This document shows positions 4,187 through 28,488 of a stretch of 28,488 nt of DNA, piece after piece. This stretch comes from a virus. The stretch spans positions 1-28,488 of the IMG/VR virus record IMGVR_UViG_3300044993_000114. The stretch is one strand, 5' to 3'. Numbering within the stretch: the stretch's first letter is position 1; each line of letters begins with the position of its first letter. The translations under genes were made by a program, and so were the position numbers. The notes below the pieces were generated by a model, which saw only the letters and a program-made list of their open reading frames with translations, made no database searches and was not told the origin of the DNA.

Positions 4187-4513
4187 ATGGCAGCTACACC
4201 TGAGAAACGTGTCAAGAGCAAGGTAGTGGGCGTTCTTAAGGACGAGGGCGCCTACTATTTCTTCCCCGCCACGCATGGCTATGGCCGTAGTGGCGTCCCT
4301 GACATTATCGCGTGTGTCAATGGGCGCTTTCTCGCCATTGAGTGCAAGGCTGGGGGCAACAAGCCTACAGCGCTACAAATTCGTGAGCTGGAGAACATAC
4401 GCCGCAATGGGGGCGTAGCTATTGTCGTAAATGAAGAGAATTGGGACACGGTGCGTAACCTAGTTAGGAATTTGAGGGAAGTGCAACATGAAACGCATCC
4501 TGATCGCCTGTGA
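4187..4513 (+). CDS. VRR-NUC domain nuclease (PD-(D/E)XK superfamily)
   Basis: This small 108-residue protein is essentially a bare VRR-NUC nuclease domain, a stand-alone form common in phages. The catalytic core is visible as GVPD at residues 36-39 and AIECK with E52 and K54, followed by Q64, which gives the D...ExK arrangement. The family is predicted to cut branched or structured DNA, a role that suits phage recombination or replication. The frame is open from an ATG at 4157, but that ATG lies inside the predicted -10 box, so the ATG at 4187 is chosen. Its 3' end overlaps the next gene by 26 bases, indicating translational coupling. Confidence 0.87.
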   Translation: MAATPEKRVKSKVVGVLKDEGAYYFFPATHGYGRSGVPDIIACVNGRFLAIECKAGGNKPTALQIRELENIRRNGGVAIVVNEENWDTVRNLVRNLREVQHETHPDRL

Positions 4514-4997
4514 GTATAGCGCTACCGTCCGCGATGCGTTTCGCGCGAGAGGGTTCGATGCGTGGTCGTGCAATCTGCTGCCAACCGACGGAGACCCGCG
4601 CTGGCAGAAACTGGATGAAGCCGCCGCGTTTTTTCGTGCGCTGTGGGATGCACCTATCGGGGCTGTGGCCATTGAAAACCCTGTCATGCACAAGTATGCC
4701 AAGGAGCGCATTGGGCTGCACCAGACGCAGACAATTCAGCCCTATCAATTCGGGCATCTGGAGCAAAAGGCGACGTGCCTGTGGCTGCGTGGACTGCCCA
4801 AACTGAAGCCAACAAGCGATCTCAAAGGAGCGCTAAAATCGCTCCCCGACAACCAACGTCAGCGGCTCCATTATCTGCCCCCGTCTGCTGATCGCTGGAA
4901 GCTCCGCTCGAAAACATACCAAGGGATCGCGGATGCGATGGCCGAGCAATGGGGCGACTACATCATGAAAGGAGAGAACCAATGTTCGAAGCAGTGA
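4488..4997 (+). CDS. DNA methyltransferase-like protein, internally deleted (catalytic segment missing)
   Basis: The first 35 residues (ILIACEYSATVRDAF, then an Asp-Ala-Trp-Ser-Cys stretch and LLPTDGDP) and the part from residue 38 on (ENP at 63-65, MHKYAKERIG, ATCLWLRGLP, RSKTYQGIADAMAEQW) match the ends of a phage protein family annotated as SAM-dependent or cytosine-type DNA methyltransferase. In members I know, the segment between these parts carries an HPPCT-type motif holding the likely catalytic Cys. Here residue 37 joins directly to residue 38 (GDP then RWQKLDEAAAFF), so that segment is absent, and the protein is 169 residues. The frame is intact, so this is a shortened but translated form, perhaps with a non-catalytic role. 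It overlaps both neighbours. Confidence 0.6.
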   Translation: MKRILIACEYSATVRDAFRARGFDAWSCNLLPTDGDPRWQKLDEAAAFFRALWDAPIGAVAIENPVMHKYAKERIGLHQTQTIQPYQFGHLEQKATCLWLRGLPKLKPTSDLKGALKSLPDNQRQRLHYLPPSADRWKLRSKTYQGIADAMAEQWGDYIMKGENQCSKQ

Positions 4998-5884
4998 CCG
5001 AAGCCGTCCGCAGGCTGTCCAAGGACGAGCGGACGGCCAGCAAAACGCTCGGCAAAGATGAGGCGCGTTTCCTTGTCGATGCCTACTATCAGATGCAGGA
5101 GAACCGCATCCGCGCCGATGCGCAGGTGCGCGAGATGGCCAAGGGCGGCGAACCGCACGAGGTGCTAGCGTGGTTGGCGGACATGAACCGGGTGCTGGAG
5201 AACCAGATTAAGCTCGCGCTCGATGTCTACTCGCTGTCCACGCCGGTCGGCCAGTGGATGCGCGCGCAGCTTGGTGTCGGACCCGTGATCGCCGCAGGGT
5301 TCCTCGCCCATCTTGACATCACCAAGGCTCCCGTTGCCGGTGCATTCTGGTCTTTTGCTGGCCTCGACCCCACGAAAGAGTGGCAGAAAGGGCAAAAGCG
5401 CCCTTGGAATGCGCAGCTGAAGACGTTGTGCTGGAAGCTGGGCGAGAGTTTCGTCAAGGTCAGCGGCAACCCCGATGCCTTCTACGGCCAGCTTTACAGG
5501 CAGCGGAAGGACTACGAGACGCGGCGGAATGAGGCGGGAGCCTATGCCGAGCAAGCGAGGGCGAAACTGGAGAAGTTCAGGATCGGCAAGGATACCCCTA
5601 CATATGCCCTCTACAGCAGCGGGAAACTGCCGCCTGCCCACATTCACGCGCGAGCCAAGCGTTATGCGGTCAAAATCTTCCTCTCGCACCTACACGAGGT
5701 GATGTATCGGGAGCACTACGGCTGCGCGCCGCCAAGGCCCTTTGCGGTCGAACATCTTGGCCATGCGCACGTCATTCCGGTTCCGCCGGGAAAGCCATAC
5801 TGCCAGACTGAAACAAACACCGGGAGCGAGCCATTAGCCAATACTGAAACAAAAAAATGGGAGCGAGCCGACGCGCGAGACTGA
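4982..5884 (+). CDS. IS110-family (Transposase_20-like) C-terminal domain protein lacking the DEDD nuclease domain
   Basis: This is a 300-residue protein. The helix-hairpin-helix-like stretch GVGPVIAAGFLAHLDI (about residues 98-113), then FWSFAGLDP at 122-130 and KRPWNAQLKTLCWKLG around 139-154, resembles the C-terminal domain of IS110/IS116/IS902 transposases. The N-terminal 90 residues are helical and show no RuvC-like DEDD domain, so this is not a complete IS110 transposase and no element ends are visible. The ATG at 4982 follows AAAGGAGAG and is preferred over an in-frame ATG at 4949. The start overlaps the upstream gene by 16 bases. The last 26 residues (TETNTGSEP, then TETKKWERA) are encoded by the first two units of the downstream repeat array, and the stop is formed by ACTGA of the third unit. 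This fits a domesticated protein tied to its repeat array. Confidence 0.72.
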   Translation: MFEAVTEAVRRLSKDERTASKTLGKDEARFLVDAYYQMQENRIRADAQVREMAKGGEPHEVLAWLADMNRVLENQIKLALDVYSLSTPVGQWMRAQLGVGPVIAAGFLAHLDITKAPVAGAFWSFAGLDPTKEWQKGQKRPWNAQLKTLCWKLGESFVKVSGNPDAFYGQLYRQRKDYETRRNEAGAYAEQARAKLEKFRIGKDTPTYALYSSGKLPPAHIHARAKRYAVKIFLSHLHEVMYREHYGCAPPRPFAVEHLGHAHVIPVPPGKPYCQTETNTGSEPLANTETKKWERADARD

Positions 5885-5978
5885 AACACCCACGCGAAGC
5901 GAGCCAACATGTCGGACTGAAACAAGCACTAGGAGCGAGCCAGACTTCCCGACTGAGGACAAGGCTTGGGAGCGAGCC
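5807..5978 (+). repeat. five-unit direct-repeat array with fixed 10-nt variable spacers
   Basis: Five units lie at 5807-5832, 5843-5869, 5880-5905, 5916-5941 and 5952-5978. Each is 26 or 27 bases: a 5' block ACTGAAACA (diverged in unit 5), a variable core of 6-7 bases, and a 3' block close to GGGAGCGAGCC. The four gaps are all exactly 10 bases and all different (ATTAGCCAAT, GACGCGCGAG, AACATGTCGG, AGACTTCCCG). A further 10 bases (ATAACGCGCG) after unit 5 lead into a decayed unit at about 5989-6014. A decayed unit may also precede the array, ending AAAGCC at 5796, exactly 10 bases before unit 1. The units are direct and not palindromic. The array overlaps the 3' end of the IS110-like gene and continues into non-coding DNA. 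The function is unknown. Confidence 0.9.
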
Positions 5979-6031
5979 ATAACGCGCGACAAGATATCAA
6001 GCGATTTGAGCGCCATTTACAGGAGAGACGC
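5885..6031. other. non-coding gap holding repeat units 3-5
   Basis: These 147 bases between the IS110-like gene and the next small gene contain most of units 3 to 5 and a decayed copy to about 6014, then the ribosome-binding site AGGAGAG at 6021. I see no open frame with a good start, no terminator and no clear promoter here. Any RNA from the array would be part of, or processed from, the operon transcript. Confidence 0.6.
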
Positions 6032-6160
6032 ATGCTGAAGACCTATTTCGAAATCCTCGGCGGGGCGCTGCTGCTGCTCGGCTGGTGGATGCTGCTCGGC
6101 CTGCTTTCGCTGGTTCCCGACGGCGGCCTGTGGGCCCAAATGATGGAGGTGCTGCCATGA
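6032..6160 (+). CDS. small single-span membrane protein
   Basis: This 42-residue protein is mostly one hydrophobic helix (about residues 8-28, GGALLLLGWWMLLGLLSLV). The ATG at 6032 is preceded by AGGAGAG with good spacing. An upstream in-frame ATG at 5966 lies inside the repeat array and has no ribosome-binding site. Its stop overlaps the ATG of the next gene (ATGA). The function is unknown. It could sit in the host inner membrane, but nothing identifies it as a holin or any other specific factor. Confidence 0.55.
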   Translation: MLKTYFEILGGALLLLGWWMLLGLLSLVPDGGLWAQMMEVLP

Positions 6161-21400: not shown

Positions 21401-24400
21401 GCAGTTAATGCGGGCGGAAAAACGAAGCCCAGCCAAAGCCTCACTGCCATGCTTGCGCACGAAATCCTGCATGGCCCGTTCGGTAGGGATAGCAGCTTCA
21501 ATCAGATTGTTGCGGGTCGCACCCATTCTCCGCACATAGTCAGCCACTTCCACAGCAGCTGAGTGGACGGCTGGCGATTTGCGCTTGAGCCAATTGAGAA
21601 TGCCGGACGTTGGCATACCCTTGAGCGCCTTGACCCGTAGCGGACTGGCTGTATCTTCTGCAAAGACGAGCGCGTCACGAAGCTTGCTGTTTGCTTCCGT
21701 AACCTCGTTGATGCCGTCCTCTATACCATAGACGTTTACGGTATCCCTGACCCTGCGGGCACCGGCGCTCACACCCTGAATGGCGTCTTTGACTTCCTTC
21801 GGTTGGCTAGCTTTTCGCTTTTTCTGGGCGGCGGTATAGTTAGGCCTATAATTTGGATCACCAGTCAGCAAGCGACCGGCTTCAGTATCTCCTGTATAAA
21901 GCAATTGGTTGCCGATACGAAGAACCTCAGCAAGAGCAGAGTCGCTCTTGGCAGACAACCCAAGAATTTTGCGCACCACTTCGACGAAACGCTGGAAGAT
22001 TGTCTGCTTAGCCTTATAGGGTACCGTATTTAAGTAATTCATCACCTCTGGGTCGGAGAGAGCCCATGCCAGCAGCTCATACTCATCATCGAAAACATTA
22101 GTTTCGCCAGAAAAAAAGTTGCGTTCTAAGTCCGTAAAACGGACGCCGGTCCATTTACGCTTCAACAAATGCCTATGAACGGCGTCAAGCACATCACGCA
22201 AATCTTTACCAAGGCGCGCAGTGCGCGTACCCGCTAACTCGGGGTCTTTCGCAAACTGCAAATACGGTATAGTTGCTGCATGTATAAACTCATGGAGCAC
22301 AGTATCATAGCTCATGCCGGTAAAGTCACCGGCGCTAACAGGATTTACATATACCGTTATGGTTTGACCCTCAGTGAAGGTTACAGCATGGGCGTTACTC
22401 GCAAATAGTTTTTTAGCGTCCTCTGGGAGTCCACTAATATCATCTACAATCTGGAAATCTATATCTATGCCAAATCGTTGCAGTCGCCTTAATGTATTAC
22501 GAACGCCTCGCGCAATGGTCGCAAAAGCTTCGTTGGGGGCGGTATCTACCAACCAGTCAACTACTTCGCTAGTCAACTTGCCACGAAGCTCAGCTTCAAT
22601 CTGCTCTGGCGTACGCTGGTCGGTTTTGGCAACTTTTCCTTTTTGCGGCTGCTGGACTCTCAGTTCCGCGAGGTCAATCCTGGCTTCGCGTGCTTCACGC
22701 GTGTCACCGGCCTTCTCCGCTTCCTTTAAGCGGATTTTAGCACCGAGTTTCTCATCTTGGCGCGTCTCAATCATCGACTTGAGCGCAGCCCGAGCAGGAT
22801 TTATCAAAGTGTTTCTGACGGCGGCAGCAAGCCGGTCGTTAGCCTCTTTGGCGGCGGCGGTAGCAGCGTCGCGATCCTTTGCAGAGGCGTTGTTAGCCGC
22901 GCTTGCGGCTTCAATCGCAGCCTTTTCCAGTTTGGCGATGGCGTCGTTGGGCACTTCTTTGCCATTAGGCAGCATGCGATAAGCGTTAGGGCGCTCAAGC
23001 CTTCTAAGCAGCTCTGCACGTTGAAGATTATCGATCAGCCCTGCCTTGCGAGCTTCGTCTACCTCAGCAATGAAGTCCTGCACCATCCGCGTAGCCACGG
23101 TAGGGTATGGCTGTTCGGAGGGCTCCTGCTTTTCCAGTTCTTCAAGAGCGGCAGGTGCTGGTGGAATATATGGAGTAAGCTCATCCATCTGGCCATAGAC
23201 CTGGTTTGAGAAATCTTCCAGCGTCTTAGCCTTGAGGACTACTTCTGGCTTCTTGCCAAGGTTTCTTTCTGCTACAAGCTTATACGGATAAGCGCTTTTT
23301 GAGTCATATATGACCTTATAGACAGCATTCTCGGGAGCCTGAGCACGCAGTGCGTATTCGATATCGCCGAGAGTTTCCTCGCGTTGAGCTTCTTCTGGTT
23401 TAGACTCTTCACGTTGAAGATTATCGATCAGCCCTGCCTTGCGAGCTTCGTCTACCTCAGCAATGAAGTCCTGCACCATCCGCGTAGCCACGGTAGGGTA
23501 TGGCTGTTCGGAGGGCTCCTGCTTTTCCAGTTCTTCAAGAGCGGCAGGTGCTGGTGGAATATATGGAGTAAGCTCATCCATCTGGCCATAGACCTGGTTT
23601 GAGAAATCTTCCAGCGTCTTAGCCTTGAGGACTACTTCTGGCTTCTTGCCAAGGTTTCTTTCTGCTACAAGCTTATACGGATAAGCGCTTTTTGAGTCAT
23701 ATATGACCTTATAGACAGCATTCTCGGGAGCCTGAGCACGCAGTGCGTATTCGATATCGCCGAGAGTTTCCTCGCGTTGAGCTTCTTCTGGTTTAGACTC
23801 TTCACGTTGAACTTCCTTGCGTTGAGGCTCTTCACGTTGAACTTCCTTGCGTTGAGGCAAGGGCACGTCGCGTTCTTGCGTTGCGCTCAATGCAGAAAAA
23901 ATCTCGTTTTGCCTAGCGACACGCTCTTCATAGGGAAGAGATTGCCACGCAGCCAAATCTTGCAGCTTCAATTCTTCTGGTGGCCCTTTCTGCAAGGGCA
24001 TATCGTCGAGCATGTATTTGGTCTGAGGAGCCGCAGGCTGCTGGTTACGTTGAGGAGAAATTGCAATCTGCTGGCTATCTTGAGGAGGAGTGGAACTTGC
24101 TTGGGCAGAAAAATTACGCGGCAGAAAATCTGGAGAATATCTACCAGCAATTTCTTCTAGAAACTCAACATCGCCCCCAGCATTTTCGTAATCGCTGAGG
24201 GTAATAGGGTTATTTAAAATAGTATACGCGCCACTAGGGGTTAGTTCTTCTGGATATCGTGCGTAATAATAAGCCCCCTCGGTTGGGTTGGTTATTTTAT
24301 ACTTACGCTTCTGTGCAGGAGCATTACCTTGTGCCTTATCGACAGCTGCCTCGTTTAACGAAGCGGCTTCGTTAGTAACGAATTGCTGTATTTCGGGGCT

Positions 24401-27571: not shown

Positions 27572-28488
27572 TTACCCACCCAAAGTCCGATAGAGCCCCA
27601 ACGCCCCAAGGCCAGTACCAAGTATCTGAGAAGCCATCGACGGGGGAGGTGCATATGTAGTCTGCGTAGAATTGAGCTGCATCGGAAGGCCCCGCAGCAA
27701 GTTGCTATATTGACCCAGCACTTCCATCGGATAATCCCGCTGGCGCAGGAAGTCGGCATATGCCTGATCGAGGTACTGTTGCTGTAAAGCCCGCTGCTCA
27801 GCCGCCGCTTCAGCTTGAGCCCTAAGACGCTGTATATTGGCGTTTTGCTGAAACTGACCTAGATTACCCAATGTCTGGCCCATCTGGCCAGCGAGCTCCA
27901 GACCAGCCAACCCCTGCTGCATACCGAACTGGCGCGACTGCTCACTAAGACGCTGCGCTTCGAGGTCAGCATGCTGATTGGCAAGCGCTGCACGGAATGC
28001 CTGATCCGCGTTAAGCCCCTGCGTCTGCAATTGTGCAGCGAGGTTTTGCACTCGAGCCTGCGTGTCAGCATCAAGATTAGCCAACGCCGCTTGGAGACCG
28101 ATTTGGGCGCCCAGTTGCTGCACACCAAGCGCAGCCTGCTGGTTTGCCTGAGCCCGTGTTACATCTACACCTTGGTTAGCCAACGCTGCACGTAGGGCTT
28201 GTTCTTGATTCATGCCCGCTGCTTGGAACTGCAGAGCTTGATTGTTCACCCTAGCCTGCTGCTCATTGGACAAGTTGGCAAGTGCCGTCTGAAGCCCAGT
28301 CTGCGTACCGAGCTGTTGCACACCAAGCGCAGCCTGCTGGTTTGCCTGAGCCCGTGTTACATCTACACCTTGGTTAGCCAACGCTGCACGTAGGGCTTGT
28401 TCTTGATTCATGCCCGCTGCTTGGAACTGCAGAGCTTGATTGTTCACCCTAGCCTGCTGCTCATTGGACAAGTTGGCAAGTGCCGTCT
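27572..28488 (-). CDS. Gln/Ala-rich repeat virion protein, 5' end beyond the window
   Basis: The frame is open to the window edge, so the true start is outside; the apparent Met start at 28471 is only a TTG inside a repeat. The visible part consists of tandem 66-residue helical repeats (ARVNNQALQFQAAGMNQEQ and similar, then ALANQGVDVTRAQANQQAAL). There are two near-identical copies and one diverged copy (LAAQLQTQGLNADQAFRAAL). A coiled-coil Gln/Ala-rich region and a compact end (QRDYPMEVLGQYSNLLRG, then LGTGLGALGLYRTLGG) follow. It resembles phage structural or internal core proteins upstream of large ejection proteins. The exact role is unknown. Confidence 0.65.
   Translation of the reverse strand, partial: TALANLSNEQQARVNNQALQFQAAGMNQEQALRAALANQGVDVTRAQANQQAALGVQQLGTQTGLQTALANLSNEQQARVNNQALQFQAAGMNQEQALRAALANQGVDVTRAQANQQAALGVQQLGAQIGLQAALANLDADTQARVQNLAAQLQTQGLNADQAFRAALANQHADLEAQRLSEQSRQFGMQQGLAGLELAGQMGQTLGNLGQFQQNANIQRLRAQAEAAAEQRALQQQYLDQAYADFLRQRDYPMEVLGQYSNLLRGLPMQLNSTQTTYAPPPSMASQILGTGLGALGLYRTLGG
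28119..28488 (-). repeat. 198-bp tandem repeats (66 codons), running off the window
   Basis: Bases 28119-28290 recur unchanged at 28317-28488, a period of 198 bp. The linking part (28291-28316) is probably also shared with a further copy outside the window. A diverged copy at the protein level lies at about 27930-28118. Copy number cannot be known from this window. Confidence 0.9.

What the first reader, a model, noticed from the sequence alone, without database searches (positions are those of the whole stretch)
5797..6014. IS110-like gene with a CRISPR-unlike array: conserved half-repeats, variable 6-7 nt cores and invariant 10-nt spacers
Seen directly: five direct repeats of 26-27 bp, each with two conserved blocks (ACTGAAACA and GGGAGCGAGCC) around a variable core of 6-7 nt, and four gaps of exactly 10 nt that all differ. 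Fixed length with free sequence argues for selection on spacing rather than decay. Decayed units seem to flank the array, again at 10-nt distance. IS110 transposases are known to be guided by a structured RNA from the element's non-coding end, whose loops hold short guide segments. A protein with the IS110 C-terminal domain directly followed by short variable segments in a constant frame suggests a related RNA- or DNA-guided system, adapted by a phage. Alternatives are an iteron-like origin or a protein-binding array. This is the strongest candidate here for an undescribed system.
Basis: partly seen in the sequence, partly recalled or inferred. Interest (0 to 1): 0.92.

Follow-up and report, generated by a model that had tools for sequence, protein, structure and literature searches.

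The report
Phage TIGR-TasA guide-RNA system
This phage carries a small RNA-binding protein and, right behind its gene, an array of short paired guide sequences; together they are a new example of the TIGR-Tas RNA-guided DNA-binding systems described in 2025, which are relatives of IS110 transposases and snoRNPs, and what the guides aim at is still unknown.

Summary
The array at 5789-6015 is an alternation of two 9-nt repeats, AGCGAGCCA (edge) and ACTGAAACA (loop), separated by 9-nt spacers: an 18/36-nt period.

This is the anatomy of a TIGR array (Faure et al. 2025, PMC12045711). The gene in front (4982-5884) encodes a solo Nop-domain protein. Its profile and predicted fold match TasR (9mty) and TasH (21kl, 9w04) far better than IS110 transposases, and it has no HNH or RuvC domain. 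It is therefore TIGR-TasA.

Of 96 loci examined, 94 have such an array; 93% of spacers are exactly 9 nt. The published SpTIGR (Salicola phage CGphi29) has the same edge core and position.

New here: between related arrays, spacer A and its partner B stay together (53 of 54) much more often than B and the next A (34 of 58). Arrays therefore change by whole tigRNA units, including internally. No spacer pair targets its own phage; no target was found.

The parts
4982..5884 (+). tasA: solo Nop-domain (coiled coil + RNA-binding C-terminal half) protein; conserved part ends near residue 265 (about 5776). The last ~28 codons are translated array, because the stop found in relatives is missing
   Evidence: PHROG 4285 E 3.5e-48; profile vs TasR 9mty E 4.5e-21 and TasH 21kl E 6e-14, IS621 only 2e-4; predicted fold vs TasH Z 18.4, TasR 16.7, IS621 13.0; relatives stop at the array start
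5789..5797 (+). 5'-truncated edge repeat (GGAAAGCCA), array start
   Evidence: same position and form in L002 and L005
5798..5833 (+). tigRNA unit 0: spacer A TACTGCCAG, loop ACTGAAACA (5807-5815), spacer B AACACCGGG, edge AGCGAGCCA
   Evidence: sequence parse
5834..5870 (+). tigRNA unit 1: spacer A TTAGCCAAT, loop ACTGAAACA (5843-5851), spacer B AAAAAATGGG (10 nt), edge AGCGAGCCG
5871..5906 (+). tigRNA unit 2: spacer A ACGCGCGAG, loop (5880-5888), spacer B CCCACGCGA, edge AGCGAGCCA
5907..5942 (+). tigRNA unit 3: spacer A ACATGTCGG, loop (5916-5924), spacer B AGCACTAGG, edge AGCGAGCCA
5943..5979 (+). tigRNA unit 4: spacer A GACTTCCCG, variant loop ACTGAGGACA (5952-5961), spacer B AGGCTTGGG, edge AGCGAGCCA
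5980..6015 (+). last, decayed unit: spacer A TAACGCGCG, degenerate loop ACAAGATATCA, spacer B AGCGATTTG, 3'-truncated edge AGCGCCA (6009-6015), directly before the ribosome-binding site of the next gene (ATG at 6032)
   Evidence: the same AGCGCCATTTACAGGAG junction in L002 and L005

Best explanation
It is a TIGR-TasA system of a tailed phage. The array is transcribed with the tasA operon (inferred). The transcript is cut in the middle of each edge repeat into 36-nt tigRNAs: half edge, spacer A, loop, spacer B, half edge (shown for FpTasA, TaTasR and SpTasH in PMC12045711; inferred here). A TasA dimer holds one tigRNA by the paired box D/box C motifs of the loop and edge repeats. It opens an ~18-bp DNA site: spacer A pairs with one strand and spacer B with the other, so on one strand the target reads B then the reverse complement of A. 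With no nuclease domain, TasA should bind and bend the DNA without cutting it. The most likely use is blocking transcription or replication of another mobile element or a host gene (inferred, weakest step).
For: Array anatomy: two alternating 9-nt repeats, 9-nt spacers, 36-nt unit, truncated edges at both ends, matching the published definition. Protein: best PDB relatives by profile and by fold are TasR and TasH complexes; no HNH or RuvC segment N-terminal to the Nop fold. Direct link to a characterised system: Salicola phage CGphi29, the published SpTIGR-TasH, is a tblastn hit, and its array has the edge core AGCGAGCCA in the same place. 94 of 96 loci carry the array, and 2262 of 2425 spacers are 9 nt. 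Spacers A and B are inherited as a pair, as expected if a tigRNA with two spacers is the working unit.
Against: No RNA data exist for this locus. The window array is short, with one 10-nt spacer, one altered loop, one decayed unit and no own terminator, so it may be partly degraded. No target was found: not in its own phage, not in related phages, and only chance-level hits elsewhere.
Confidence: 0.93

Rival explanations
1. A relic: a TIGR-TasA locus of the same origin that is decaying in this phage and no longer makes working guides.
For: Short array, one 10-nt spacer, altered loop ACTGAGGACA, decayed last unit, loss of the tasA stop so that the ORF runs into the array.
Against: Four to five units keep edge, loop and near-exact spacing; the tasA frame is open and all columns invariant among relatives are kept; published arrays most often have 5-15 units.
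Confidence: 0.12
2. An IS110-family transposase with a bridge-RNA-like non-coding region, i.e. a mobile element.
For: Weak Pfam Transposase_20 match, E 0.005, below the gathering score; PHROG 4285 is labelled transposase.
Against: The N-terminal DEDD/RuvC domain is absent (the Nop fold begins at residue ~22); TasR and TasH match far better than IS621; the non-coding part is a multi-unit dual-repeat array, not a single two-loop RNA; in L002 and L005 the same downstream gene follows with no element boundary.
Confidence: 0.02
3. A DNA element: iterons or a protein-binding array (origin, centromere-like or partition site) for TasA or another phage protein.
For: Direct repeats at a fixed 18-bp period next to a DNA-binding-type gene; TasA loci can be linked to ParB-like genes.
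Against: Two alternating repeats with 9-nt variable spacers and truncated ends fit TIGR exactly; spacers are inherited in A+B pairs; 36-nt RNA processing has been shown for homologous arrays.
Confidence: 0.03

Closest known systems
SpTIGR-TasH of Salicola phage CGphi29 (HQ634153; PMC12045711; PDB TasH entries 21kl, 9w02-9w04, 9vzx)
   Same: Homologous Nop domain (tblastn E 2e-9; fold Z 18.4); edge core AGCGAGCCA; array directly downstream; 36-nt unit
   Different: TasH has an N-terminal HNH domain, and a terminator-like hairpin follows its array; the window protein and array have neither, and its loop repeat is ACTGAAACA instead of AGACAACCA
TIGR-TasA (FpTasA of Flavonifractor plautii; PMC12045711)
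   Same: Solo Nop protein with no nuclease; dual-repeat array with 9-nt spacers and a 36-nt unit
   Different: Different lineage and different edge/loop sequences expected; the FpTasA sequence was not compared here
TaTasR (PDB 9mty)
   Same: Nop fold (profile E 4.5e-21, fold Z 16.7); 36-nt dual-spacer guide
   Different: TasR carries an active RuvC domain; the window protein lacks it
IS110 family transposases (IS621 8wt6, ISCro4 9t56)
   Same: Nop-like RNA-binding domain (fold Z 13)
   Different: No DEDD/RuvC domain, no bridge RNA; a multi-guide array instead
Microcystis phage Mvi-JY20 (PP438412) hypothetical protein XAI95461.1
   Same: Tas homologue with a TGCGAGCCA/ACGAAACCC array and a terminator-like hairpin downstream
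   Different: Spacers alternate about 8 and 10 nt; 28% identity to the window protein

Membership tests
TIGR-Tas (TIGR-TasA) | Nop-domain protein of the Tas clade | tested here: met
   Profile vs TasR E 4.5e-21, TasH 6.1e-14, IS621 2e-4; Foldseek top 11 hits all TasH/TasR; Z 18.4/16.7 vs 13.0 for IS621. No tree was built
TIGR-Tas (TIGR-TasA) | Adjacent array of two alternating 8-12-nt repeats separated by ~9-nt spacers (36-nt unit) | tested here: met
   94 of 96 loci of the family
TIGR-Tas (TIGR-TasA) | Array starts and ends with truncated edge repeats | tested here: met
   GGAAAGCCA at 5789-5797 and AGCGCCA at 6009-6015
TIGR-Tas (TIGR-TasA) | Rho-independent terminator after the array (described as typical, not as defining) | tested here: not met
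   None found after the array; the next gene's ribosome-binding site follows at once
TIGR-Tas (TIGR-TasA) | Box D (UG) and box C (CCA) motifs in both repeats | tested here: inconclusive
   Loop ACTGAAACA has TG...ACA, edge AGCGAGCCA has CG (TG in some relatives)...CCA, so each box is exact in one repeat and off by one base in the other; the paper says these boxes can diverge
TIGR-Tas (TIGR-TasA) | No nuclease domain (distinguishes TasA from TasH and TasR) | tested here: met
   Alignment with TasH shows no HNH counterpart; Nop fold spans residues ~22-257 of 300
TIGR-Tas (TIGR-TasA) | 36-nt tigRNA bound by the protein; dual-strand DNA targeting | not testable with these tools
   Needs RNA pull-down and binding assays
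IS110 transposase family | N-terminal DEDD (RuvC-like) domain | tested here: not met
   Nop fold begins at residue ~22; IS621 aligns only from its residue 125 on
IS110 transposase family | Bridge RNA in the element's non-coding end; element mobility | tested here: inconclusive
   Dual-repeat array instead, and the same gene follows in L002 and L005; no empty site was sought
CRISPR-Cas | Identical 23-47-nt repeats, long spacers, cas genes | tested here: not met
   Two 9-nt repeats and 9-nt spacers; the ORFs scanned around the array gave no cas family

The most novel reading that the evidence does not exclude
In phage TIGR-TasA arrays the whole tigRNA (spacer A plus spacer B) is the module of evolution. 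Units are gained, lost, duplicated and moved inside the array, with breakpoints at edge repeats and not only at one end, so guide repertoires are reshuffled between related phages without a Cas1-like machinery. The nuclease-free TasA then uses these guides to bind and bend, not cut, DNA of elements other than its own phage.
Probability: 0.45. Interest if true: 0.7.

Novelty: new member of a known kind. Interest (0 to 1): 0.45.

Why it matters
TIGR-Tas was described in 2025. Its natural targets, the role of nuclease-free TasA and the way arrays change are stated there as open. The family shown here (347 relatives found in IMG/VR by two short patterns, 80 of them fetched) gives sets of near-identical phages whose arrays differ, which makes array evolution testable. 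A first result is that change goes by whole A+B units. It also re-labels PHROG 4285, now called 'transposase / integration and excision', as Tas in at least this branch, so phage annotation that uses it is misleading.

Tried and rejected
(1) Self-targeting: best own-genome matches of 126 guide pairs follow mispaired controls in both layouts. (2) Targets in the phage contigs fetched whole and in 1.13 Mb of fetched sequence with 851 distinct tigRNAs: no clear excess over mispaired controls (one-mismatch hits 11 against 5 per shuffle, several of them the same site in redundant contigs; two-mismatch hits 56 against 67); the one exact hit (L148) had been fetched by that very pattern. (3) IMG/VR scans with four window tigRNAs, allowing gaps of 0-2: 1, 0, 2 and 2 hits, one mispaired control 0. 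My rough estimate of chance is a few per scan, assuming a collection of some 10^10 bases (size not known). The hits lie in unrelated phages (a tape-measure gene, two very GC-rich phages, a RecB/Cas4-like gene by eye). (4) Halomonas prophage guides against ~200 genomes of the host family: 12, 0 and 0 hits versus about 10, 0 and 1 for the reversed-pattern control; not pursued. (5) Rfam: nothing at the array. (6) RNA fold of the whole array: z +1.5, no structure beyond chance, in line with the published remark that precursors form no long duplex. (7) Iterons, CRISPR and an IS110 element were considered and rejected (see membership tests).

Full report
OBSERVATION. Reading the sequence and a chain model gives: GGAAAGCCA | TACTGCCAG ACTGAAACA AACACCGGG AGCGAGCCA | TTAGCCAAT ACTGAAACA AAAAAATGGG AGCGAGCCG | ACGCGCGAG ACTGAAACA CCCACGCGA AGCGAGCCA | ACATGTCGG ACTGAAACA AGCACTAGG AGCGAGCCA | GACTTCCCG ACTGAGGACA AGGCTTGGG AGCGAGCCA | TAACGCGCG ACAAGATATCA AGCGATTTG AGCGCCA. 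Two different 9-nt repeats alternate, and every gap is a 9-nt spacer apart from one 10-nt spacer; two loops are altered. The two-block pattern is not expected by chance (3 matches, 0 in shuffles).

RELATIVES. The protein finds 11 close relatives in IMG/VR, and every one has an array next to the gene. With an alignment as query, 347 relatives were found and 80 fetched, plus 16 stretches in bacterial genomes, among them isolates of Halomonas and Acidobacteriaceae. In 94 of 96 loci examined (redundant contigs included, the six most distant genome hits L142-L147 left out) the array score exceeds the highest of 96 shuffled controls; the two failures are L130 and L138. The median is 25 repeats, and 2262 of 2425 spacers are 9 nt. 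The parser favours 18-nt steps, so the 93% is somewhat helped by the method; the lag-36 signal was also seen without any model.

WHAT IT IS. [quoted passage not shown] The window meets this. The protein profile hits TasR (9mty, E 4.5e-21) and TasH (21kl, E 6e-14) before IS621 (2e-4). The AlphaFold2 model (mean pLDDT 75.8) matches TasH with Z 18.4, TasR 16.7, ISCro4 and IS621 13, and the Nop5-fibrillarin complex 7.1 (a Z near 7 alone would mean little for a helical protein). The Nop fold fills residues ~22-257, and there is no HNH region such as Salicola TasH has. It is TasA. Salicola phage CGphi29, whose TasH system was characterised in that paper, appears as a tblastn hit, and its array has the edge core AGCGAGCCA.

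MECHANISM. Shown elsewhere: arrays are cut within edge repeats to 36-nt RNAs bound by TasA, TasR and TasH; spacers A and B pair with opposite strands; gaps of 0-2 bp are tolerated; no PAM is needed; TasR makes 8-nt 3' overhangs. From the 3' overhang I derive that the target reads B then rc(A) on one strand; this is my inference. For TasA, no cutting is expected. The paper suggests blocking of transcription or replication, or DNA bending. Inferred here: the window's five to six units work in this way. Two points speak for caution: the loop of unit 4 and the last unit are altered, and the array has no terminator of its own. In the window and in L002 and L005 it runs straight into the ribosome-binding site of the next gene, so it is probably part of a polycistronic transcript.

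TARGETS. None found. Guide pairs match their own phage no better than mispaired pairs. The same holds for related phages, and hits in IMG/VR and in a host family are at chance level. This argues against self-regulation and agrees with targets in other elements, but it is negative evidence.

ARRAY EVOLUTION (new here, as far as the papers held show). Near relatives such as L098/L103, L088/L103, L060/L061 and L092/L094 share some spacers in order and differ in others. Differences are mostly even blocks that begin with a spacer A and end with a spacer B; many are internal, with both array ends kept; some units appear at another place or twice. For each shared spacer I asked whether the next spacer is also the same. 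Within a tigRNA (A to B): 134 of 142. Across an edge (B to next A): 73 of 131 (Fisher p 1.5e-14, all pairs including redundant ones). With eight hand-picked less redundant pairs: 53 of 54 against 34 of 58, p 1.3e-7 (counts summed by hand, test); these pairs still share some members, so the p-value is indicative. Edge and loop were told apart by the truncated repeats at array ends. So the tigRNA with both spacers is the unit of gain and loss. Either recombination happens in edge repeats or selection keeps pairs together; these data do not separate the two. The window's own array shares no exact spacer with its nearest relatives L002 and L005, although the proteins are 86-90% identical, so turnover is fast.

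VERDICT. A well-supported new member of a known kind.

Noticed in passing
4488-4997: The gene before tasA resembles phage DNA methyltransferase PHROG 757 but matches only profile positions 100-230; its middle seems deleted (no PPC motif). In L010 a longer version with that region lies directly downstream of the array.
   Followed up: partly
5804-5884: tasA of the window has lost the stop codon that relatives have at the array start, so the protein ends with residues translated from the first two guide units; L005 also reads a short way into the array.
   Followed up: yes
L007 and L012, Tas genes: These two TasA proteins carry a ~56-residue insertion in the middle of the Nop domain (after the GLDP motif) that others lack.
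   Followed up: no
L060-L063, L084: Arrays of a related phage group from several samples with 27 to 97 repeats (up to 1.7 kb), sharing some tigRNA units in shuffled order.
   Followed up: partly
L132 2300-3000: In the Halomonas prophage the TIGR array lies between an ssb-like gene and tasA, with a dUTPase-like gene downstream (names by eye, not searched).
   Followed up: no
23012-23811: Two 393-bp tandem copies, 99% alike and in frame, inside the gene for the 2546-aa protein: a recent duplication or an assembly effect.
   Followed up: no
28119-28488: Nearly two identical copies of a 198-bp unit at the very end of the contig, in a repeat-rich coding region.
   Followed up: no
1-34: 2.3 tandem copies of CGAGTTATCAACCAA at the left end of the contig.
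   Followed up: no
1591-1668: GGAAGCAGC repeated ~8.7 times, coding a Gly-Ser-Ser linker in the 414-aa protein (PHROG 1314).
   Followed up: no
L089, L097, L116, L140: Steps of 16-17 nt alternate with 18 nt here, so unit lengths below 36 nt seem to exist in this family; the generic parser may mis-phase them.
   Followed up: no
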